In this document: positions 29,536 to 55,373 of the stretch, one piece after another
How positions within the stretch are numbered: position 1 is the stretch's first letter
Layout of the letters: each line of letters starts with the position of its first letter
Assembly (NCBI GenBank): GCA_031281345.1
Contig: JAITFN010000015.1
Coordinates: forward strand, 1 to 64,000
Reading direction: 5' to 3'
Length of the DNA: 64,000 nucleotides
DNA from: Candidatus Fibrimonadaceae bacterium
Lineage (GTDB): Bacteria > Fibrobacterota > Fibrobacteria > Fibrobacterales > Fibrobacteraceae
Notes under the pieces: model-generated
What the model saw: only the letters and a program-made list of their open reading frames with translations
Databases searched by the model: none
Told to the model about the DNA's origin: nothing
Made by a program: the position numbers and the translations under genes

Positions 29536-30042
29536 CTAAAAAAACACATTTTTTTTCTCTTTTCTACAATCCCAATCTTCATCGGTATAGGAGCGTATAG
29601 AATTTAAATCTATTATGTCTTTTAAATTACCTTCTTCGGTATTATCGCATACAAGCATTACATGGAATACAATGTCGTTACTAGCACCGCATATTTCTGC
29701 ATTATATGGTTTTATTTTGTATAAAACTATACCTTTCGAAAGAATCCAATATTTAATAATGGTAGATGGGGTAGCAAAGTACATAGCAAAATAATTACAT
29801 TTAGATTCTGCATAATCTTTATCAAATACGTGCGGAAACCATGACTCTAAAGTGTCTTTGCCAAGAATAAAACCATTCTTATATTTTGGACGTAGATGTT
29901 CACTCTTATCTCCAATCATTCTATAAGATACTACCGCTTTGCTATTAATGGGTGGAACCTCGCTGAAAAACCAATTGCAAGAAAAAAATGCAACCGATGT
30001 TACAAAAATGCAAACAAATCTACCAATAGAGACTTTCATCAA
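29536..30042 (-). CDS. hypothetical lipoprotein
   Basis: Signal peptide with FFSCNWFF lipobox-like motif; ATGA overlap with upstream S8 peptidase gene. Confidence 0.6.
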   Translation of the reverse strand: MMKVSIGRFVCIFVTSVAFFSCNWFFSEVPPINSKAVVSYRMIGDKSEHLRPKYKNGFILGKDTLESWFPHVFDKDYAESKCNYFAMYFATPSTIIKYWILSKGIVLYKIKPYNAEICGASNDIVFHVMLVCDNTEEGNLKDIIDLNSIRSYTDEDWDCRKEKKNVFF

Positions 30043-31826
30043 AAATTCTCGCGCAAGTGATAACCTAAAAGTACATTGCCGCCAGCGTTAAAACTTCTTT
30101 TGAAAATTATAGTTAAAGGTGCATTTGACTGTGTGACAAAATCAACAACTTCAAAAGCATTCGTTGATGATGTTGAAGAAGCAATTCTTTTACCGTTTTG
30201 CTCAACATATAAACCAATGATTTGAGGGGATCTTCCAAATTGATAAACAAAAGTACCGGAAACAAGCCATGCTATGGCTATCCTATAACGTTTATTCGCT
30301 TGAATATTATTTTCTGTAAATTTTATTTCTTTATTGGAGTCAAAGAAATCAGAATTTCCTCCATTCCACCATGCGCTTCTTGTTCCCCAAGCAACGCTGG
30401 AATAAGTCATAATTCCTTTAGCAATTTGAGAATAATTGTCTGTATCCCAAGAATTAGCATTTTGAATAGGTATCGTTTCTCCAGTCAAAAGAACCGCTTT
30501 CATTAAAGCTGGCTGTCGCTTAAAAAAAGGATGCTGATCTAATAGTGAAGCTGTAAAACCTGCCGCAAGAGGAGTAGCTGCACTTGTGCCATCTATGAAA
30601 CCATAAATACCCATATCTATGTCGGTATACATTGCTATTTCAGGCTTATCGCTACCTTTGTTGATATCATTGACTAACATAGTGACGTTATTTCTAAGTA
30701 AAGGGTTTTTCCAACTAGAGCTCCACGAGTCATAATCAACATAGCGATTTGTAGCAGGATCTATCGCGCCAACAGTTATGACATTCATAGCTTTACCCGG
30801 AGATGTTACAGGGATATACTTGTCGTTTCCAGCAGATACAAAATTTATTACTTTATTTTCATAAATGTAATTATCCATATTCGCATCACGGCCGCCGTAG
30901 AAAGCATTACCTTTGTCATAATAATAACTATGCGTACCTATTTCTAAAGGAGGGGAATATGAAAATGGATTTGAAGGATACGGAGCGGAACTATTAATTC
31001 CAAAAATATGTGCTGAAGTGGCAGCTTTTTGCACAACATTTACAACCCTACTATGATGCGTATCATAAGTACCAGTACATTTATCTGTATATCTGCCTGA
31101 ATCTACTATTGGAAAATTTGTATTCCTACAATTAATCTCCGCTACGTAAACTCCTATTCTTTTGCCATCATAACCAATATTATGGGCAGTTGACAACTGA
31201 ATTGTTGACAAAATAGAGACTATACTGGCAGTTGATTCTGGTTCTTTATAATCGTCAATAATGAGTTCTTTATAATTTTTTGTCAGCTCGTAAATTTCCT
31301 CTGCCGTCATCCACGCTGTCCAGCTACGGTCATCTGAACTTATTACACCTTGAACAGGCAAATCTCTTTTGCCTCTTTTTTCTTGTCTAAATTTTGCCAA
31401 ATTCTTATCTAAATATTCAAGGTATTCTTTTTCACTTATTTTTTTACCATTAAATGAATAATTATGTTTTTTAGTTTCGGAATTGTATTCATAGCTGGCA
31501 TACGCAGGTTCTATATTATTTTCACGTATATGCATATCCGAAACAAGAACCAGCCTTTTTTGTTTATTATCTACAACCTTTACCTCTCCTTTTCCGATTT
31601 TATCGGTACTTGATTTTACCCTACCCTTAACATCAGTCTTCATTTCAATAGTCTTTTTCTCGCTGGCTTTGGCGAGTTGTTCGTTCATCCACTTTTCCAC
31701 ATCTGGGCTTATTATTACCACATTGGGATCGTAAGGAGGCAGATATTCTTCTTGTGAATATGTATTTTGCCAAGCAAAACAAAACAGAAAGGCCAAAAAC
31801 ATCAATGATTCGAAAGAGATTTTCAT
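30039..31826 (-). CDS. S8 (subtilase) family serine peptidase
   Basis: Ser motif GTSAATPLAAGF; FVSAGND oxyanion-region motif; signal peptide; N-terminal prodomain-like region. Confidence 0.82.
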   Translation of the reverse strand: MKISFESLMFLAFLFCFAWQNTYSQEEYLPPYDPNVVIISPDVEKWMNEQLAKASEKKTIEMKTDVKGRVKSSTDKIGKGEVKVVDNKQKRLVLVSDMHIRENNIEPAYASYEYNSETKKHNYSFNGKKISEKEYLEYLDKNLAKFRQEKRGKRDLPVQGVISSDDRSWTAWMTAEEIYELTKNYKELIIDDYKEPESTASIVSILSTIQLSTAHNIGYDGKRIGVYVAEINCRNTNFPIVDSGRYTDKCTGTYDTHHSRVVNVVQKAATSAHIFGINSSAPYPSNPFSYSPPLEIGTHSYYYDKGNAFYGGRDANMDNYIYENKVINFVSAGNDKYIPVTSPGKAMNVITVGAIDPATNRYVDYDSWSSSWKNPLLRNNVTMLVNDINKGSDKPEIAMYTDIDMGIYGFIDGTSAATPLAAGFTASLLDQHPFFKRQPALMKAVLLTGETIPIQNANSWDTDNYSQIAKGIMTYSSVAWGTRSAWWNGGNSDFFDSNKEIKFTENNIQANKRYRIAIAWLVSGTFVYQFGRSPQIIGLYVEQNGKRIASSTSSTNAFEVVDFVTQSNAPLTIIFKRSFNAGGNVLLGYHLRENF

Positions 31827-42614: not shown

Positions 42615-43712
42615 TTACTTATTAGATTTTCTACGGTTGTCTTCCTTACACAACATTTCACAATTTTCAATTATTGTTTTACCACCCAAACTCCAAGGGG
42701 TTATATGGTCAGCTTCCATTTCCTCTATTTTAAATTTTTTACCACACTTTTTACAAATACCGTCTTGTTTTTCATAAACTTTTAATTTCTCTTTGTCAGT
42801 AAAAGAACGAATACTCAAATGTTTTTCCTCACCATCTATTAAATACTCATAAATTCCTTTTTTACTTGTAACATCATCATCATCAATAAGTTTTTTTATT
42901 TGTTTTTCCAAATCATTTGAATTAAATTTTTTGTCCTTAAAATTGTTGTAAAGGTTTCCCCAATTTATACCTTTCATTTCCTTTCTGTAATTTGGAAAAA
43001 TAACATTTACCCAATTTATTACACCTTGAAAATACAGCCATAATTCATTAGCGTTTGGTGTGTGTTGGTGTTCAGCCATATATTTTTCTATGTTGTTTTC
43101 ACTAATCCATTTTATAGCCGTTTCCAAATACTCTTGTCTGTTTGGGTGTCCATTTAAATAATCTTTGGATATATTGTAGGCTGGGCAATTATTTTTACTA
43201 AAATACCTTTTAGCATCTGTAAGCCATTCACCTGTGTAAATAGCATTTCTTAATTCTTGGTCTGTTAGTTTTTCACCAGCTATGTTTATTATTTTGAACC
43301 AGTCCAATTTTTCCCTGTCTGTTCCTTCACAAAAATAAATCATTAGTTTGTATTTAAGGATTTTTTCTTGTTCCTCTTTTTCTAGGTTATGAAAATACTG
43401 TGGCTTTCCTTTTGTAAATTCTATTGAAAAATTACCAACAACATATTCACAAATACTTATGGTTCTTTGTTGTCCGTCTAAAACTTCATAGGTTTCATTT
43501 TCGTTTTTAGCCCAATACATAACATTAAGGGGAAAGTTTTTCCAAATTGTTTCCAAAACGGCGTTACGTTTTTCGTCTTTATACACAAATTCCCTTTGGT
43601 ATTTTGGTCTTATGTTTAACCTACCATCATACCCAACAACACCTTCCTCGTCTTTGTTGGTGTAATTTTTTACAACCTCTTCCACAGGGATTTCTTTCAA
43701 ATCTATTTTCAT
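42615..43712 (-). CDS. DUF262 and HNH endonuclease domain protein
   Basis: DUF262 motif YEVLDGQQRTIS; C-terminal HNH: CKKCGKKFKIEEMEADHITPWSLGGKTIIENCEMLCKEDNRRKSNK. Confidence 0.88.
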   Translation of the reverse strand: MKIDLKEIPVEEVVKNYTNKDEEGVVGYDGRLNIRPKYQREFVYKDEKRNAVLETIWKNFPLNVMYWAKNENETYEVLDGQQRTISICEYVVGNFSIEFTKGKPQYFHNLEKEEQEKILKYKLMIYFCEGTDREKLDWFKIINIAGEKLTDQELRNAIYTGEWLTDAKRYFSKNNCPAYNISKDYLNGHPNRQEYLETAIKWISENNIEKYMAEHQHTPNANELWLYFQGVINWVNVIFPNYRKEMKGINWGNLYNNFKDKKFNSNDLEKQIKKLIDDDDVTSKKGIYEYLIDGEEKHLSIRSFTDKEKLKVYEKQDGICKKCGKKFKIEEMEADHITPWSLGGKTIIENCEMLCKEDNRRKSNK

Positions 43713-43713
43713 T

Positions 43714-44664
43714 TTATTTCTCCTTTTTTTTGATTAAAAGACGGGCATAGGTTTCTTTGTTATTAAGTTTAAATCTATGTCCATAGTTTGGGTTGTCTTC
43801 AACATATCTATCAATACCAATAATTTCAAATTGTTGTGGGTTGTATTTGTCTAAAAAGGTAATTGGAACACCCATTACACCATCATAATCCATAGGGATT
43901 TCTTTGGTTACATCTACATTTATGGCTTTGTAATTGTCATACTTTGGGTAATCTTTTTTATTGTATTTTTTGTAGAGAATTAAATTTTCGTGTCGTTCTT
44001 TGTAATCCAAATTTGTGAACCAACGAACACCTTTAACACGAATATAGTGGTTTCCCTCGTTGTCTATTCTATAACCAGCTGCTTTCAAAGGATAATCTTT
44101 TGGAACTTTAAATTCCCTGTCTCCACTATGAATACTAACCCCAAGCCAAATTTTATTTTCTTTAATTAACTTGAAAATCTCTTTGTAAGTTATAGAATTT
44201 ACATTACCAATAATTACAAACTTCCTTTTATATTCCACAAGTTGTTCTACATATTCTCTAAACAAACTAAAAGGGGGATTTGTTATTACAATATCACTTT
44301 TTTTCAAAATTTCCACACATTCTTTACTTCTAAAATCCCCATTTTCTATTAAAATTGTTTTAACACCCACCATAATATCATTGTCATTACCACCCTCATA
44401 TTCCAATTTATATGTTTCACCTTGTTTGAAAATATCCTCATATACAAAGTGTGTGGAGATAAGTTTTTTAATTCCCAATTTTTCAAAATTCAAGTGAAAA
44501 TACTTCCAAAAATTACTTAATTCTGGGTCATCACAATTACAGAAAATAACCTTACCTTTTAGGTGTTCCTTGTAATGGTTTATTTCTCGTTCTATGTCTG
44601 GTAGTTGTGTATAGAACTCGTCTTTTTTGGCTTTACTAGCTAGGTGTAAATTTAAATTACCCAC
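43714..44664 (-). CDS. adenine-specific DNA methyltransferase, EcoRI-methylase family
   Basis: FYTQLPDIEREINHY, CNCDDPELSNFWKYF, ITNPPFSLFREYV (motif IV NPPF). Confidence 0.88.
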   Translation of the reverse strand: MGNLNLHLASKAKKDEFYTQLPDIEREINHYKEHLKGKVIFCNCDDPELSNFWKYFHLNFEKLGIKKLISTHFVYEDIFKQGETYKLEYEGGNDNDIMVGVKTILIENGDFRSKECVEILKKSDIVITNPPFSLFREYVEQLVEYKRKFVIIGNVNSITYKEIFKLIKENKIWLGVSIHSGDREFKVPKDYPLKAAGYRIDNEGNHYIRVKGVRWFTNLDYKERHENLILYKKYNKKDYPKYDNYKAINVDVTKEIPMDYDGVMGVPITFLDKYNPQQFEIIGIDRYVEDNPNYGHRFKLNNKETYARLLIKKKEK

Positions 44665-44924
44665 AGATTTCTAATGTAGAAAAAATATTGAAAATTTACT
44701 CCCAAAGCCTAGAAAACTATTACAACAACCCAAATTCACGTAATTCTTACGTCAAAATCCATTCTAACCCTGTGGGTGTGGGTGTATGAATTTGCTGGCT
44801 GAATTTGTAAAATTACCCCTTTTATTTTTAATTCTAGCCCTTTGATTTCGTTTTAGGTAATAACACCTATTCACAAATTCAAGGGGTTTATCCACCTTTT
44901 CTAATTGTAAATAAATATGTTTGG

Positions 44925-45198
44925 TAGTGGTGTAGTTTCAAGTGTTCCACGCATACTTACACAATAGTTCTATAAGTATAATGAATTTGAAAATACACCA
45001 CTAAAACAATAAATTATTATAACATAAGAATATAAAACATTTGATATTACACCATTAAAAACATTAAACAAAAAAATAATAAATAATATAAAAACAAAAA
45101 ATAAAAAGTATGAAAAAATAATAATTTATTAAGGTGTAATTTCATAAATCAGATATATGAAGTGGTAAGTGTGTCAAGTGTTTGAAACTACACCACTA
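44925..45198. repeat. five iteron-like copies of TGAAAWTACACCAYTA
   Basis: Copies at 44925-44940(-), 44988-45003(+), 45042-45057(+), 45129-45144(-, imperfect), 45183-45198(+). Confidence 0.75.
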
Positions 45199-45873
45199 TA
45201 ATTTATTCTCTTTCAAAACCTTTTTAATTGTCCTTTTGTCCGTTTTTAATTCTTGGTGTATTTTATTAATAGAATAACCTTGTTTGTGAAGGTTTATTAT
45301 TTTCTCTTTTTTTACATCTTTTATTTTATTCCCAGCCCCCTCTCTTTTACCACCACGTTTTATTTCCACACCATTTTTTCTATTGTATTCATTTAACCAT
45401 TTTCTAATAGTGGGTTTGGTATAAGGTTTAGGTTTCCTTCTAACCAATGAAGCCAACATATTTGCTTCTTTTATGTTTCCATTTTTTAACCACCAATAAA
45501 AGAAAATTTCTTTGGCTCTGTGGTCATTACTGATTTTTTTCATTATAAAATCTGGTAACCATTTTGTTTCACTTGTTTTGGGTGGCTCATAAGGCTTGTA
45601 GGTTTGTTTCCATTTAGGGATTTGTCTAAAAAGTTGATTTACTTGGTTGTTTATTGTTTTAGCATTGTGTTCAGTATGTTTTAACCTGTAATGTTTTGAT
45701 TTGTTTATTATTTCCTGTATTGTGGTTTTTAACCAACCTCTGGTAACGCTAAAATAAGGGTCTTTGTCCCATTCCATTTTAACAGCCATTCTAACAGAAT
45801 AATAAATTACTTGGTGGTGACGGTCAGCCCATTCAGCTGATTTTTCTATATAATCGTCTAGTGTTTTTTTCAT
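45196..45873 (-). CDS. HTH-containing protein of the integrative element
   Basis: 225 aa; C-terminal resolvase-like HTH (KQGYSINKIHQELKTDKRTIKKVLKE); stop overlaps the last iteron. Confidence 0.55.
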   Translation of the reverse strand: MKKTLDDYIEKSAEWADRHHQVIYYSVRMAVKMEWDKDPYFSVTRGWLKTTIQEIINKSKHYRLKHTEHNAKTINNQVNQLFRQIPKWKQTYKPYEPPKTSETKWLPDFIMKKISNDHRAKEIFFYWWLKNGNIKEANMLASLVRRKPKPYTKPTIRKWLNEYNRKNGVEIKRGGKREGAGNKIKDVKKEKIINLHKQGYSINKIHQELKTDKRTIKKVLKENKL

Positions 45874-46011
45874 TTACAACCTTTCCCCCTTCAAAAAAAT
45901 TACACACCCAAAAAAACAATTTTCTTGGGAAAGGTGGGTAGTTTTGAAGGCTCTACCACACCTGTTTTATTTATTTGGGAAAAATAGTAAATAACCTAAA
46001 AAGGTATTTTT

Positions 46012-46140
46012 ATGAATAACGAAAATTCAGTTCCAAACAAAATTCTAAAATGGGCAGAAAACAAAGAAAAAAGGGAAGGAAAATCACGTAAGGTTTTGTA
46101 TAATCCAAAAGAGAAAGTGTCTAAAACACAAGGAAAATAG
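46012..46140 (+). CDS. small basic protein (42 aa)
   Basis: MNNENSVPNKILKWAENKEKREGKSRKVLYNPKEKVSKTQGK, convergent with the integrase gene. Confidence 0.35.
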   Translation: MNNENSVPNKILKWAENKEKREGKSRKVLYNPKEKVSKTQGK

Positions 46141-46142
46141 GG

Positions 46143-47333
46143 TTAGAAATAATCCTCTTCAAGCCACTTCAACAATTCCTTTCTCTCCTTGATAGTTTCC
46201 TCAAATCCAGCCTTGAAATGTTTGGGTTCAAATTTTCCATAAAGGTCTGTGGTGATACTTGTTCCAGCGTGCCCCATTTGATAGCTCACCATTTGTAATG
46301 GAGTTTGGGCTAGTAGCTTATTCACAGCAAAAGTATGTCTCAACCTGTGTGGGTGTATTCCTTTGTAATACCTACCCAAAACCAGCCTAAAAGCATTTGT
46401 GGTTGTTTTGAATATATTGCCCCTCTCAAATAGTTTTACTAAGGTGGGGCAAATAGGGAGATTTCTATTGGCTGAACTTGTTTTACCTGTGGTTTTAATG
46501 TTTCCAACAAAATCGCCATGTAAAGAAATAATGTTATTTTTAAGGCTGTCTGGTTTTATAGCATTTAATTCGCCCAACCTTATACCTGTAATCAAAAGAA
46601 ACAAAGCTATATCGTGGTAAGATTTATTTGTTTCAAGATTTTTCAATAATGTTTTTTGTTCCTCAATGCTCAAAGGCTCAACTACCTTTTTATTTTTTCC
46701 AACCACAGCCTTAACCTTAACCGACCCCCAAAGGTTTCCGTTATGAATCCAGCCTTGTAAAGCCGCTAGTTTGGCTAGCTGTTTCAAAATGTCAAGCCCT
46801 TTTTTAATCGTGCTAGCACTTACAATTCCTTTGTGTTTGCTGTATCTTTTTTGGGAACGCCAATTTATAAAATCATAGGCGGTGCTTAATTTTAGGTCAT
46901 TGGTTGTTTTAAGTTCATAATCATTGAAAAAATCAAAGAATAACCTTTCACAACCAAAGTGCTCAACGTCTTGTAAATCCTCAGCATTTTTACTTTTTTT
47001 CCAAAGCTCAAAAAGTTCTCTCAACGAGTGTGTTCCCAATTTCTCAACACCTGAATTGTAGGGTAGTGTTATGGTGGGTGGTATTATTAAACCACGTATA
47101 AATTCCTTTTTACCCTCCTCGTCTAGGCTTACATACTGAATTACGATTTGTTTCACCTCTTGGGGTGTAATGGTTTGTCTTCTCTCTTTGGGTAGTAAAA
47201 CCATTATAGTTTCGTGGGCTGTTTTACACAACCTTAAAAACGTTTTATTCAGTTTTGGAACGGCGTAGGATATTTCCTTGTAGCCTCTTGTTTTATCCCT
47301 GATTAGCCCTGTTTTCTCAACCAAACAAGCCAT
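46143..47333 (-). CDS. tyrosine recombinase/integrase
   Basis: LFLLITGIRLGE (Arg I), HPHRLRHTFAVNKLL (HxxR), GHAGTSITTDLYG (Tyr). Confidence 0.95.
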   Translation of the reverse strand: MACLVEKTGLIRDKTRGYKEISYAVPKLNKTFLRLCKTAHETIMVLLPKERRQTITPQEVKQIVIQYVSLDEEGKKEFIRGLIIPPTITLPYNSGVEKLGTHSLRELFELWKKSKNAEDLQDVEHFGCERLFFDFFNDYELKTTNDLKLSTAYDFINWRSQKRYSKHKGIVSASTIKKGLDILKQLAKLAALQGWIHNGNLWGSVKVKAVVGKNKKVVEPLSIEEQKTLLKNLETNKSYHDIALFLLITGIRLGELNAIKPDSLKNNIISLHGDFVGNIKTTGKTSSANRNLPICPTLVKLFERGNIFKTTTNAFRLVLGRYYKGIHPHRLRHTFAVNKLLAQTPLQMVSYQMGHAGTSITTDLYGKFEPKHFKAGFEETIKERKELLKWLEEDYF

Positions 47334-50571: not shown

Positions 50572-52869
50572 CTAAAAAACCTGCGTTTTTCCTTGACTAA
50601 AATCCACCTTCATAGTCCCCATTTCGGAAGTTTTATAGTTCCTAATTCCAAGGCTGTCCAGCCTATCCAAAACCTCCTTGCTCGGATGCCTGTACATATT
50701 TTTTTGCGCAACAGAAATAATGGTAGCACTCGGTGAAACCCTCTCCAAAAACTCCCTTGTGCTTGAAGTTTTGCTCCCGTGATGCCCAAGTTTCAGCACA
50801 TCGCTTTTTATGTCTAATGGGAGCAGCTGCCTCTCACCCTGTTTTTCCAAATCTCCTGTTAAAAGCAAAGTTTGTCCAAGCCCCTCAACTTTTAGCACTA
50901 TGGAATTGTTGTTCTGATTTTTTTCGCAGAGCAAGGAATCGGGATAAAGAACGGTTAAATCCCATTCACTTTTTGAAATGAGCATTTTTTCTTTTAAGCC
51001 GAGTCCCGTGTGCAAATTTTTTATAGGTACTCCCTTTGCCTTTGCAGTTTCCAAAACGTTTCGCCAAGAGCGGTCTTCCACAGAGTGCTGGGCACACGAA
51101 GTTGTCCAAAATTCTTTTACGGGAAATTCCTTCAATATATCTGCGGCATTGCCGTAATGGTCTGCGTGTGGGTGAGATATTATCATAGCATCTATTTTTG
51201 AAATTCCCTGCGAGCGAAAATAGGGAATTATTTTGTCTTTGGCAAGGCTTCGTTTTTTCCCCGGAGGCCCTGCATCCACAAGATAAAAACGCCCACCCGG
51301 GCTTTTCAGCAAAATGCTATCCCCTTGCCCAACATCTAAAAACACCGCACTCCAGCTCGGAAAAAAATTCTTTTTAAATTCAAATCCAAAAAAAACTACA
51401 GCGCAAAAAAACAGGCAAAAAATTGCCACTCGCCGCACTCGGTGATTTTTTCTTCTCATAAACGGCAATAAAGATATAAAAATTGAAATGGCAAATAAAC
51501 AGGGCAGGGGCCAAGGACCAATGGTAGAAGAAGCATAAGGATTTACAGCCAAAAAACTTGTGATTACAGAACTTGCCCGCAAAAGAAGTGTTGCGGAATC
51601 CGCAAAGGTTTGACAAATAAAAGGGTGAATCCCAAAAAGCGATAAAACGCTAGCCTGCATACCCAAACCCACAAGAGGAACAACCACCAAATTTCCAAGC
51701 CAAGATATTGGAGAAAAAGACTGAAAATGAAAAACGAGCAAGGGCAAAGTACTTAGCGTTGCACAAAGTGTTATAAAACTCGGATTAAAAATAAAAGAGG
51801 AAAAAACTTTGCCTATTTTACCGCGAAAACTCGGTAATTTAATGCCCTGCCCAAGCAAAATTCCAAAAGTCGCCGCTGCGGAAAGCTGAAATCCGGCATT
51901 GAAAGCCTGTTCTGGGCTAAAAATCAGGATAAAAACAAGAGCAACCCCAAGTGCATTTATTGAATTTGCATTTTTTTGAAAAATATTTCCGCTTTCCATA
52001 ACGCAAAACATAAGCACAGCGCGCCACACCGCAGAAGAACCGCCTGTTATGGGGGCATAAAGGCATAAAAGGGCTATGGATAAAATTTGCGAAACCTTGC
52101 GGGGCAGCCTCAAAGCCCTCAAAAACAGAGTGAGCATACCCGCCAGCATAACAACGTGAAACCCTGAAATGCTTAAAACGTGAACTAAGCCCGTTTTTCT
52201 AAAATCATTCTGCAAAGTTTCCGAAATCCCAGACCTATCGCCTGCCAAAAGCCCCATAAGCAAGGCACTTTCGGGTTTGGCATAGTATTGCAAAAAGTAT
52301 TTTTCCAATTTTTGCTTTACAGAGAACGAAAATCTCTGAAAGGTGAATTTACTACTCAAAATTTCAACTTTCTCTAAACTACCGCTTGCCCTATACCCCT
52401 GTGAGCGCATCCATTCCGGTGCATTGAAGGAACCAGGCACGGTTGGTGGGGTGGCGGGAAACCATTTTGCCTGCCACAAAACGCTATCACCGGGCAAGGG
52501 GAAATTTTCTCCGGCATAGTTCAGGCGGGTTTTGCCAAAATCCGTTTTTAAAATTATTGCGTGGCCATTTGGCCTGTTCAAAACCTCTTCCACAGTGCCC
52601 TGCCCGCTTTTAGGAGGATTTTCCTCAAAACGGAAGCTGTCTTTTTGCAAAAAATAAGACGAAAGAATCACTCCGCAGACCGCAAAAGAGACTTTTCTAA
52701 GTACAGGGCTCAGAATATAAAGCCAAAAGGCGAGCAAAAATGCTATTTGCCAGTGAACAGTTGCCCCAAGTGCAAGCAAAACGCTTACAGCTCCCGAAAA
52801 TGCCGGATAGCGATTGAAATTATTTCCTATCATACCTATTAGACGTAAAAAAAGGGAAAAAAATCCCAA
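50572..52869 (-). CDS. comEC: DNA internalization-related competence protein ComEC/Rec2
   Basis: Competence TM domain (LLMGLLAGDRSGIS, HVLSISGFHVVMLAG) plus MBL domain (FLDVGQGDSILL, ISHPHADHYGN). Confidence 0.93.
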   Translation of the reverse strand: MGFFSLFLRLIGMIGNNFNRYPAFSGAVSVLLALGATVHWQIAFLLAFWLYILSPVLRKVSFAVCGVILSSYFLQKDSFRFEENPPKSGQGTVEEVLNRPNGHAIILKTDFGKTRLNYAGENFPLPGDSVLWQAKWFPATPPTVPGSFNAPEWMRSQGYRASGSLEKVEILSSKFTFQRFSFSVKQKLEKYFLQYYAKPESALLMGLLAGDRSGISETLQNDFRKTGLVHVLSISGFHVVMLAGMLTLFLRALRLPRKVSQILSIALLCLYAPITGGSSAVWRAVLMFCVMESGNIFQKNANSINALGVALVFILIFSPEQAFNAGFQLSAAATFGILLGQGIKLPSFRGKIGKVFSSFIFNPSFITLCATLSTLPLLVFHFQSFSPISWLGNLVVVPLVGLGMQASVLSLFGIHPFICQTFADSATLLLRASSVITSFLAVNPYASSTIGPWPLPCLFAISIFISLLPFMRRKNHRVRRVAIFCLFFCAVVFFGFEFKKNFFPSWSAVFLDVGQGDSILLKSPGGRFYLVDAGPPGKKRSLAKDKIIPYFRSQGISKIDAMIISHPHADHYGNAADILKEFPVKEFWTTSCAQHSVEDRSWRNVLETAKAKGVPIKNLHTGLGLKEKMLISKSEWDLTVLYPDSLLCEKNQNNNSIVLKVEGLGQTLLLTGDLEKQGERQLLPLDIKSDVLKLGHHGSKTSSTREFLERVSPSATIISVAQKNMYRHPSKEVLDRLDSLGIRNYKTSEMGTMKVDFSQGKTQVF

Positions 52870-52968
52870 AAAAGTGAAATCTTTTAAAAAAAAGTGATTT
52901 TTTTATGAAAATATCTGTTTTTTTATCGGAATTTAAATAAATAGCCATAAAAATTATATATTATTAGT

Positions 52969-53691
52969 ATGTCTATTACTATTAAAACATTCGCCTTTGT
53001 CGCTGCGGTATCAATGTTACTTTTATCTTGCAACGAATTTGGTACCAATTCCGATTCTAGTAGCACAAACGACTCAGCTTTTGCTCCCAGCTGCAAAGTC
53101 TATATCAGCCGTGATGTCTATGACGGCCCTGATGACCCCTCTATTGTTATAATAGTTGGAGATGTGCAAGACTGGATAGAAGAGCAGCTTGCATCTGGCG
53201 GCAATGAGAGAAAGCCCATTTGGATTGCAATGTCGGACATACATTTAGCAAATATGGATATTCCAAAAAGACCTGAGGTTAGTGGCACTTACAATGAAAT
53301 AACCGGAGAATCCAAATTTTTCATAAATGATCAAGAAGTCACTTATGATTATGTAAAAGAAAGTGAAGAGGCTTGGCGGCAAGAATACATAAAATTTATG
53401 GAAGAACAAATACCTTTGTATATGGCTTCTGTGTATATTCCGGGCGAGAATGTGGAAATACTCCACGGCGGTTGGAAAGCGTTTATGACAGCAGAGGAAA
53501 TCGTTGAATTATCAGAAAACAACGAAGGACTTTCAATTTCGTTCTGGACAGAAGCTCCTTATATGCCTGGAATACCTGTAGACGATATGCCTATAGACGA
53601 GGGTGGCAGTGGTGATGCAACATTGGAATACACGCAAACGTACATAGAGTACACTGTAGGTAAAGTAGAATACTCTCATCGTTGTCCTTAA
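52969..53691 (+). CDS. lipoprotein homologous to the N-terminal prodomain region of the S8 peptidase at 30039..31826
   Basis: Lipobox LLLSCNEF; shared DPxxVII..DVxxWxxEQLA, SDxHxxxxxI, WxAxMTAEEIxEL motifs. Confidence 0.75.
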   Translation: MSITIKTFAFVAAVSMLLLSCNEFGTNSDSSSTNDSAFAPSCKVYISRDVYDGPDDPSIVIIVGDVQDWIEEQLASGGNERKPIWIAMSDIHLANMDIPKRPEVSGTYNEITGESKFFINDQEVTYDYVKESEEAWRQEYIKFMEEQIPLYMASVYIPGENVEILHGGWKAFMTAEEIVELSENNEGLSISFWTEAPYMPGIPVDDMPIDEGGSGDATLEYTQTYIEYTVGKVEYSHRCP

Positions 53692-55373
53692 CCGAGAAGC
53701 CCCTTAACCTTTTCTACAACCTCTGCAATAGGTACCATTTCCATATCTTTCTTAGAGCGAAGTTTCCACTCAACTTTGTTCTCTGCAAGACCTTTTTTGC
53801 CTATGGAAATGCGAATTGGTATTCCCCATAAATCGCCGTCTTTGAACTTAACGCCTGGGCGTTCGTCACGGTCATCAACCAGAACTTCTATTCCTTGGGC
53901 TTCCATTTCTTTTTCCAGTTGCTCAGATACCTGCAAAATTGCATCGTCTTTTGCTATTTGCACAATGAGAACTTGGAATGGTGCAATGGAAAGGGGCCAT
54001 ATAGGACCAAAATCATCGTGGCTGTTTTCAACAACGCTTGCCATTAAACGACCAACGCCAATTCCGTAGCAACCCATTATAGCGGGTTTAACCTCGCCTG
54101 CCGCATCTGTGAAAGAACAATTCATATTTTCGCTGAATTTTGTGCCCAGCTTGAATATATTGCCAAGTTCAATGCCCCTTGTTTCCGTCAATTCCTTTTC
54201 GCATTTGGGGCAAAGACAATCCGCTGCTGCTTCTGCAATATCCACCGTTTCAAAACTGGCAAAATCTCTTTTTGGAATGCAGTGAATAAAGTGATAGCCT
54301 TCTTCGTTTGCACCAACGATTAAGTCTTTGCTTTCGGCGGCTCCAGTGTCTAATATTATTCTGCAATTTTTTGCATTTATTGGGCTTGCATAGCCCGGAA
54401 TCATTCCGCTTGCTTTTATCAATTCTTCGGAGGCGGGGATTAAGGTTTTCACTTTCAAAAAATTTCTCAGTTTAGTTTCGCTCACCTCTAAATAACCCTG
54501 AACCAAAGCTACTATCAGTTTGCCATCAACGTCAAAAAATACGCATTTGCCGGCATTTTTTTTGTTCGCTTTTAAAAAAGTGCAAACCTCATCAATGGTT
54601 TGTTTGCTAGGCGTTGCTACTTTCTCAAGACTCAAATTTCCATCAACTGGTTGCCTTTTGAATTCGGCTATTTCCCTGTTCGCTTGGTAGCCGCAATGTT
54701 TGCAGATAATTAAGTAATCCTCACCGCTCGGCGTGTCTAGCATAAATTCGTGGGCAATTTTTCCACCCATAATTCCTGTGTCGGACTGAACAATTACGGG
54801 TTCTATCCCAACTCTGTTGAAAATTTTTTGGTAGGCTTTGTATTCAAGTTCGTAGTGCTTGTCTAAATCTTCTGATGTGGAATGGAAACTGTAGGCATCT
54901 TTCATTTCAAATTCGCGTACCCTGATTAAACCGCCTCGCGCACGCGCTTCGTCTCTGTATTTTGTTTTGAATTGGTAGAGCATAAAGGGCAGTTGCTTGT
55001 AGCTGGAAAGCACGTAGCGCGCCATATCGGTAATGGCTTCTTCGTGGGTCATTGCCAGCACCATATTGTGGCTGTTGCGGTCTTTGAAACGGAGCAGTTC
55101 GTCTCCTATCGCTTGGTAGCGGCCAGCCTCGCTCCAAAGCTCGGCGGTTTGTACCACTGGCAAATCCACTTCCATTCCGCCAATTACGTTCATCTCTTCC
55201 CTTATTATATTTTCAATTTTGCGAATAACCCTAAGCCCCAAGGGTAATATGCTGTATATACCTGTGGATAATGGCTTAATATAGCCGCCTCGCATTAAAA
55301 ATATATGGCTTGGCAGTTGCGCATCGCTTGGAATTTCGCGAAGCGTTGCGTAAAAGAAATTTGAGAGTTTCAT
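53688..55373 (-). CDS. proS: prolyl-tRNA synthetase
   Basis: Class II aaRS motifs; RGGLIRVREFEMKDAYSFH; inserted editing domain. Confidence 0.96.
   Translation of the reverse strand: MKLSNFFYATLREIPSDAQLPSHIFLMRGGYIKPLSTGIYSILPLGLRVIRKIENIIREEMNVIGGMEVDLPVVQTAELWSEAGRYQAIGDELLRFKDRNSHNMVLAMTHEEAITDMARYVLSSYKQLPFMLYQFKTKYRDEARARGGLIRVREFEMKDAYSFHSTSEDLDKHYELEYKAYQKIFNRVGIEPVIVQSDTGIMGGKIAHEFMLDTPSGEDYLIICKHCGYQANREIAEFKRQPVDGNLSLEKVATPSKQTIDEVCTFLKANKKNAGKCVFFDVDGKLIVALVQGYLEVSETKLRNFLKVKTLIPASEELIKASGMIPGYASPINAKNCRIILDTGAAESKDLIVGANEEGYHFIHCIPKRDFASFETVDIAEAAADCLCPKCEKELTETRGIELGNIFKLGTKFSENMNCSFTDAAGEVKPAIMGCYGIGVGRLMASVVENSHDDFGPIWPLSIAPFQVLIVQIAKDDAILQVSEQLEKEMEAQGIEVLVDDRDERPGVKFKDGDLWGIPIRISIGKKGLAENKVEWKLRSKKDMEMVPIAEVVEKVKGLLG

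What the first reader, a model, noticed from the sequence alone, without database searches (positions are those of the whole stretch)
52969..53691. Stand-alone lipoprotein homologous to the prodomain region of the S8 protease 21 kb away
Lipoprotein: DPSIVIIVGDVQDWIEEQLASGG...IWIAMSDIHLANMDI...YNEITGESKFFINDQEVTYDYVKESEEAWRQEY...GGWKAFMTAEEIVELSEN. Protease N-terminus: DPNVVIISPDVEKWMNEQLAKAS...LVLVSDMHIRENNI...YNSETKKHNYSFNGKKISEKEYLEYLDKNLAKFRQE...RSWTAWMTAEEIYELTKN. Co-linear over the prodomain, catalytic domain absent. Subtilase prodomains are chaperones and inhibitors, so this may be a cell-anchored inhibitor or immunity factor, or a decoy chaperone, acting on the secreted protease.
Basis: partly seen in the sequence, partly recalled or inferred. 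Interest (0 to 1): 0.68.

Follow-up and report, generated by a model that had tools for sequence, protein, structure and literature searches.

The report
Lipoprotein built from a protease prodomain
A termite-gut bacterium carries a membrane-anchored protein that is a detached copy of the "safety-catch" domain of one of its secreted protease families; such copies occur across its genus, even in genomes where that protease was not found, so they probably bind or block such proteases, but no binding has been shown.

Summary
The lipoprotein at 52969-53691 is homologous to the N-terminal (pro-) region of the subtilase at 30039-31826 (BLASTP 3e-9; profile 49.7 bits against 16.6 for the best of 7000 shuffles). 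It is one of a family of stand-alone prodomain lipoproteins found in 7 of 12 genomes of the genus (Ca. Fibrimonas, termite-gut Fibrobacterota). The tree nests them inside the Fibrimonas protease prodomains. They share a deletion of the DxLGR segment and flanking cysteines.

The inhibitor/immunity reading is plausible but indirect. Five of the eight genomes without this protease still carry stand-alone prodomains, and the window's copy is among the most diverged, so an inhibitor tied to the protease 21 kb away is not specifically supported. Membership in the I9 propeptide-inhibitor family was not met by sequence and is unresolved by structure. Most likely it is a permanent, membrane-anchored antagonist of such proteases, self-made or from neighbours (about 0.45). 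New variant of a known kind.

The parts
52969..53691 (+). Stand-alone prodomain-like lipoprotein, 240 aa (the finding)
   Evidence: ORF; homology
52969..53031 (+). Lipoprotein signal peptide and lipobox Cys21; leader resembles that of the PART lipoproteins
   Evidence: sequence; the PART profile matches 52969-53121 over its positions 1-49 only, E 6.9e-6; leader search of the own genome
53119..53559 (+). Prodomain-homologous part (residues 51-197); modelled order b-a-b-(hairpin)-a-b-b-a-b
   Evidence: HMM domain 51-197, i-E 4.4e-38, from a profile that includes this sequence; AF2 model mean pLDDT 63.6, core about 80
53560..53688 (+). C-terminal tail (modelled with very low confidence) with Cys239, which could pair with Cys42
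   Evidence: Cys positions; pLDDT below 50 from model residue 155
31227..31751 (-). Homologous prodomain of the S8 protease (residues 26-200)
31563..31667 (-). MKTDVKGRVK segment present in the protease prodomains and absent from the stand-alone lipoproteins
   Evidence: alignments
30039..31826 (-). S8 protease, 595 aa: signal peptide, prodomain, catalytic domain (Glu230 at the Asp position, His257, Asn334, Ser415), C-terminal beta domain
   Evidence: Pfam PF00082 5.4e-13; alignment with subtilisin and KP-43 structures
29536..30039 (-). PART lipoprotein, directly downstream; its ATG overlaps the protease stop (TGATG)
50572..52869 (-). comEC-like gene, left neighbour
   Evidence: name from sequence knowledge
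53688..55373 (-). proS-like gene, right neighbour; overlaps the lipoprotein stop by 4 bp, convergent
   Evidence: name from sequence knowledge

Best explanation
The gene encodes a protease prodomain that has become a permanent membrane-anchored protein. In Ca. Fibrimonas the prodomain of a secreted subtilase lost its DxLGR segment, was placed behind a lipoprotein leader (possibly that of the PART gene of the same operon) and acquired flanking cysteines. The most likely action is that the ectodomain binds the active-site face of mature subtilases of this family, as the attached prodomain is expected to do before cleavage, but as a stable inhibitor, and so protects the cell envelope from its own or a neighbour's protease. 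Shown: homology, derived position in the tree, lipobox, retention of and selection on relatives. Inferred: export and anchoring, the disulphide, binding, inhibition and the protective role.
For: Homology far above shuffles. Stand-alone copies in 7 of 12 genus genomes, grouped with the Fibrimonas protease prodomains at 100/100 support and derived relative to other S8 prodomains; a single origin is not rejected (p-AU 0.24). Purifying selection on other stand-alones: omega 0.52 and 0.38 in two close pairs, with dN about 14 times that of proS between the same two genomes. A Cys near the start and one near the end in nearly all complete stand-alones, none in the window protease's prodomain. The second lipoprotein family of the same proteases (PART) is also kept as orphans, and in one genome after deletion of the protease interior. 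Stand-alone subtilisin propeptides characterised in eukaryotes are potent subtilase inhibitors (PMC6993865).
Against: No interaction data. The window's copy is a long branch: it lacks the GKRDLP-type motif, and the acidic residue after the last strand (D191 in the protease) is replaced in 'SISFWTE'. Stand-alones occur in G004, G008 and G011, in which no Pfam S8 match was found, and in G003 and G006, which have only other S8 types. Foldseek finds no significant match for the low-depth model.
Confidence: 0.45

Rival explanations
1. Exapted fold: the detached prodomain is an ordinary surface or periplasmic lipoprotein (for example a binding module) and no longer acts on proteases.
For: Present in genomes without a detected cognate protease; fast evolution of the family and loss of conserved motifs in the window's copy.
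Against: Most other stand-alones keep the GKRDLP-type motif and the acidic residue after the last strand, as the proteases do.
Confidence: 0.27
2. Decaying relic: a duplicated prodomain fragment inserted between proS and comEC, under weak or no selection.
For: No close orthologue found in other genomes; in G002 proS and comEC abut without it, and the close relative G008 has another gene at that place; longest end branch among the stand-alones.
Against: Open full-length frame with intact signal peptide, lipobox and both flanking cysteines; relatives show omega below 1.
Confidence: 0.13
3. Trans-acting folding helper (chaperone) for the proteases, like ORF2 of the Aeromonas sobria protease.
For: Prodomains of subtilases are intramolecular chaperones; ORF2 is encoded just downstream of its protease and inhibits it with IC50 84 nM (PMC5638518).
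Against: The proteases keep their own prodomain, the gene is unlinked, and copies exist without a detected protease. PART, not this gene, has the ORF2-like position.
Confidence: 0.08

Closest known systems
Stand-alone subtilisin propeptide-like inhibitors (POIA1, yeast Pbi2, Arabidopsis SPI-1, TgMIC5, Plasmodium SUB1-ProM; PMC6993865)
   Same: A prodomain-like protein encoded as its own gene, without a catalytic domain.
   Different: Those are eukaryotic, and are classed in MEROPS I9 or shown to have the propeptide fold; here the protein is a bacterial lipoprotein with clear sequence descent from the prodomain of a protease family in the same genome, and no I9 sequence match.
Aeromonas sobria protease ASP and its ORF2 chaperone (PMC5638518)
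   Same: A subtilase with a separate inhibitory or chaperone partner encoded just downstream; compares with PART.
   Different: PART is a lipoprotein and the Fibrimonas proteases keep an N-terminal prodomain; no relation of sequence was tested.
KP-43 subfamily peptidases of Bergeyella cardium (PMC11982257)
   Same: KP-43 (1wmd) is the best PDB match of the catalytic domain; Bergeyella enzymes have an inhibitory propeptide unlike I9.
   Different: No stand-alone copies described in the passages read; sequence relation of the propeptides not tested.
Orphan immunity genes of bacterial effector systems
   Same: Antagonist-like lipoproteins persist, and PART multiplies, without the enzyme gene.
   Different: No toxicity of the protease, delivery route or immunity has been shown.

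Membership tests
MEROPS I9 / Pfam Inhibitor_I9 (subtilisin propeptide) | Sequence match to the family | tested here: not met
   No such Pfam match for the lipoprotein, its relatives or the proteases at E up to 1; PDB profile searches give no propeptide; hhalign to five I9 sequences recalled from memory scores 10.8, within the column-shuffled null (maximum 19.0)
[quoted passage not shown]
   The AF2 model has the elements in that order plus an extra hairpin and an N-terminal strand-helix, but mean pLDDT is 63.6 and Foldseek finds nothing significant
MEROPS I9 / Pfam Inhibitor_I9 (subtilisin propeptide) | Inhibits a subtilase | not testable with these tools
   Needs purified proteins
Prodomain family of the Fibrimonas S8 proteases | Homologous over the domain and grouped with the protease prodomains | tested here: met
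Prodomain family of the Fibrimonas S8 proteases | DxLGR segment and GKRDLP-type motif | tested here: not met
   Segment absent from the stand-alones; motif kept by most other stand-alones but absent from the window's copy
Bacterial lipoprotein | Signal peptide with lipobox and Cys | tested here: met
   MSITIKTFAFVAAVSMLLLSC, read from the sequence; no predictor was run
Effector-immunity pair | Immunity gene adjacent to the effector gene | tested here: not met
   The lipoprotein is 21 kb from the protease; PART, not this gene, is adjacent
Effector-immunity pair | Protects against the enzyme | not testable with these tools
   Needs an experiment
Peptidase family S8 (the homologous protease) | Asp-His-Ser triad | tested here: inconclusive
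   His257 and Ser415 conserved; Glu230 aligns with the Asp position

The most novel reading that the evidence does not exclude
Fibrimonas subtilases are competition or host-directed weapons whose two built-in antagonists, the prodomain and the co-encoded PART lipoprotein, have each been released as families of membrane-anchored orphan 'immunity' proteins that protect cells lacking the protease from their neighbours.
Probability: 0.18. Interest if true: 0.75.

Novelty: new variant of a known kind. Interest (0 to 1): 0.5.

Why it matters
Stand-alone subtilisin propeptides are known from a few eukaryotes and have been suggested to reflect convergence (PMC6993865). Here descent from a protease prodomain can be traced within one bacterial genus, through loss of a segment, a lipoprotein leader and added cysteines. 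It gives a testable case of an enzyme's own safety catch becoming a separate gene.

Tried and rejected
Full-length protease model from four sequences: unusable (mean pLDDT 36.8). Foldseek of the lipoprotein model: nothing significant. I9 by profile comparison: within the null. Pfam and NCBIfam: nothing for the lipoprotein. Plasmids and viral contigs: no relatives. Chance similarity rejected. Signal peptides as the cause of the match rejected, since the aligned region starts after them. Rfam on the insert in the G001 protease: nothing. A shared flanking cassette or mobile element around the stand-alone genes: flank comparison showed only leader similarity and one orthologous pair. An early idea that the catalytic Asp is simply lost (Asn) was dropped after the structure-based alignment put Glu230 at that position.

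Full report
1. Observation. The ORF at 52969-53691 encodes a 240-aa protein with a lipobox. It aligns with the region between signal peptide and catalytic domain of the S8 protease at 30039-31826 (-): residues 47-195 against 24-195, 26% identity, E = 3e-9 for the single comparison. A profile built from nine protease prodomains alone scores the mature lipoprotein at 49.7 bits; the best of 7000 shuffled stand-alone sequences reaches 16.6. The reverse search and a profile-profile comparison (99.9%) agree.

2. Source. The window is contig C29 of a 2.56-Mb genome (84% complete). The nearest named records are Fibrobacterota MAGs, including Candidatus Fibrimonas termitidis, so I call the genus Fibrimonas; the assignment is by relatives.

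3. Distribution. The own genome has two S8 proteases, both of this family, and three stand-alone prodomain lipoproteins: the window's, one on C58, and one split over the ends of contigs C58 and C10. Stand-alone copies were found in G000, G001, G003, G004, G006, G008 and G011. The protease catalytic domain was found only in G000, G001, G002 and G005. So five of the eight genomes without the protease carry stand-alones. If each had one protease copy lost at random to incompleteness (60, 87, 88, 78 and 77% complete), the chance that all five miss it would be about 3 in 10,000 (my estimate, assuming independence). G003 and G006 have other S8 types; G004, G008 and G011 show no Pfam S8 match.

4. 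Descent. In the prodomain tree, with related S8 prodomains from other genera of the family as outgroups, the stand-alones and the Fibrimonas prodomains form one group (100/100). Inside it the deepest fork is unresolved, and a single origin of the stand-alones is not rejected (p-AU 0.24). The window's copy has a long branch and its place is unsure. The stand-alones lack the DxLGR segment that S8 proteases of other genera also have, so loss is the simpler reading. Some stand-alone leaders resemble the leader of PART: the PART profile matches several of them over its first 31-49 positions only, and a leader query of the own genome found two stand-alones and, weakly, PART. Borrowing of that leader is possible but not shown.

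5. The partner. At 8 of 9 Fibrimonas protease loci a second lipoprotein, PART, lies directly downstream; one of the eight is cut by a contig end. The exception is a protease interrupted by an insertion in G001. In five loci PART overlaps the protease stop by 1 to 4 bases. PART also occurs as orphans, tandem arrays and two-domain fusions. In G010 the protease is reduced to its signal peptide joined in frame to about its last 20 residues, followed by an intact PART. No other protease of this family was found in G010.

6. Selection. Two close stand-alone pairs give omega 0.52 and 0.38. Between G000 and G008 the stand-alone dN is 0.23 against 0.016 for proS, with dS 0.44 against 0.30. These proteins are constrained but evolve fast. 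The window's own gene has no close orthologue, so its selection was not measured.

7. Place of the window's gene. In G002 proS and comEC overlap directly; in the window an 818-bp stretch with the lipoprotein on the other strand lies between them. G008, whose proS is 97% identical, has another gene there. The gene is therefore probably a recent arrival at this place.

8. Structure. The AF2 model of residues 42-240 from six sequences has mean pLDDT 63.6, with about 80 in the core. Its elements come in the order expected of a subtilisin propeptide plus a hairpin. Foldseek against the PDB finds nothing significant, and sequence comparison with I9 is within the null. Family I9 membership is therefore not claimed. 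KP-43-type peptidases with a non-I9 propeptide are known (PMC11982257), and KP-43 is the closest solved relative of the catalytic domain.

9. Mechanism. Prodomains of subtilisins bind the active-site face of their enzyme and inhibit it until removed (established for that family). A lipoprotein version with flanking cysteines could serve as a lasting, membrane-held antagonist. This is the best explanation at 0.45. The rivals are exaptation, relic and trans-chaperone. The tie to the protease 21 kb away is not specifically supported.

Noticed in passing
window 29536-30039 (-); L049, L052, L053, L055, L059, L060: PART lipoprotein family, without Pfam or NCBIfam match where tested, directly downstream of the protease; also orphan, tandem and two-domain copies.
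   Followed up: partly
L133 5482-6233 (-), G010:C172: Protease reduced by internal deletion to signal peptide plus about 20 C-terminal residues, in frame, with PART intact behind it.
   Followed up: yes
window 31137-31139 (-): Glu230 at the position of the catalytic Asp; Glu at this place in most Fibrobacteraceae relatives examined (Asp in L054), with the His and Ser conserved.
   Followed up: partly
L044 7630-8456 (G001:C9): Protease interrupted between prodomain and catalytic part by an insert that reads like an IS1-type transposase (by eye); a stand-alone prodomain lipoprotein lies just upstream.
   Followed up: partly
window 52870-53687: 818-bp stretch with the lipoprotein between proS and comEC, absent in G002 where the two genes overlap.
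   Followed up: yes
window 42615-47333: ORFs that read like an HNH-type nuclease, an adenine methyltransferase-like protein and a tyrosine recombinase, next to a flagellin-like gene; possible integrated element (by eye).
   Followed up: no
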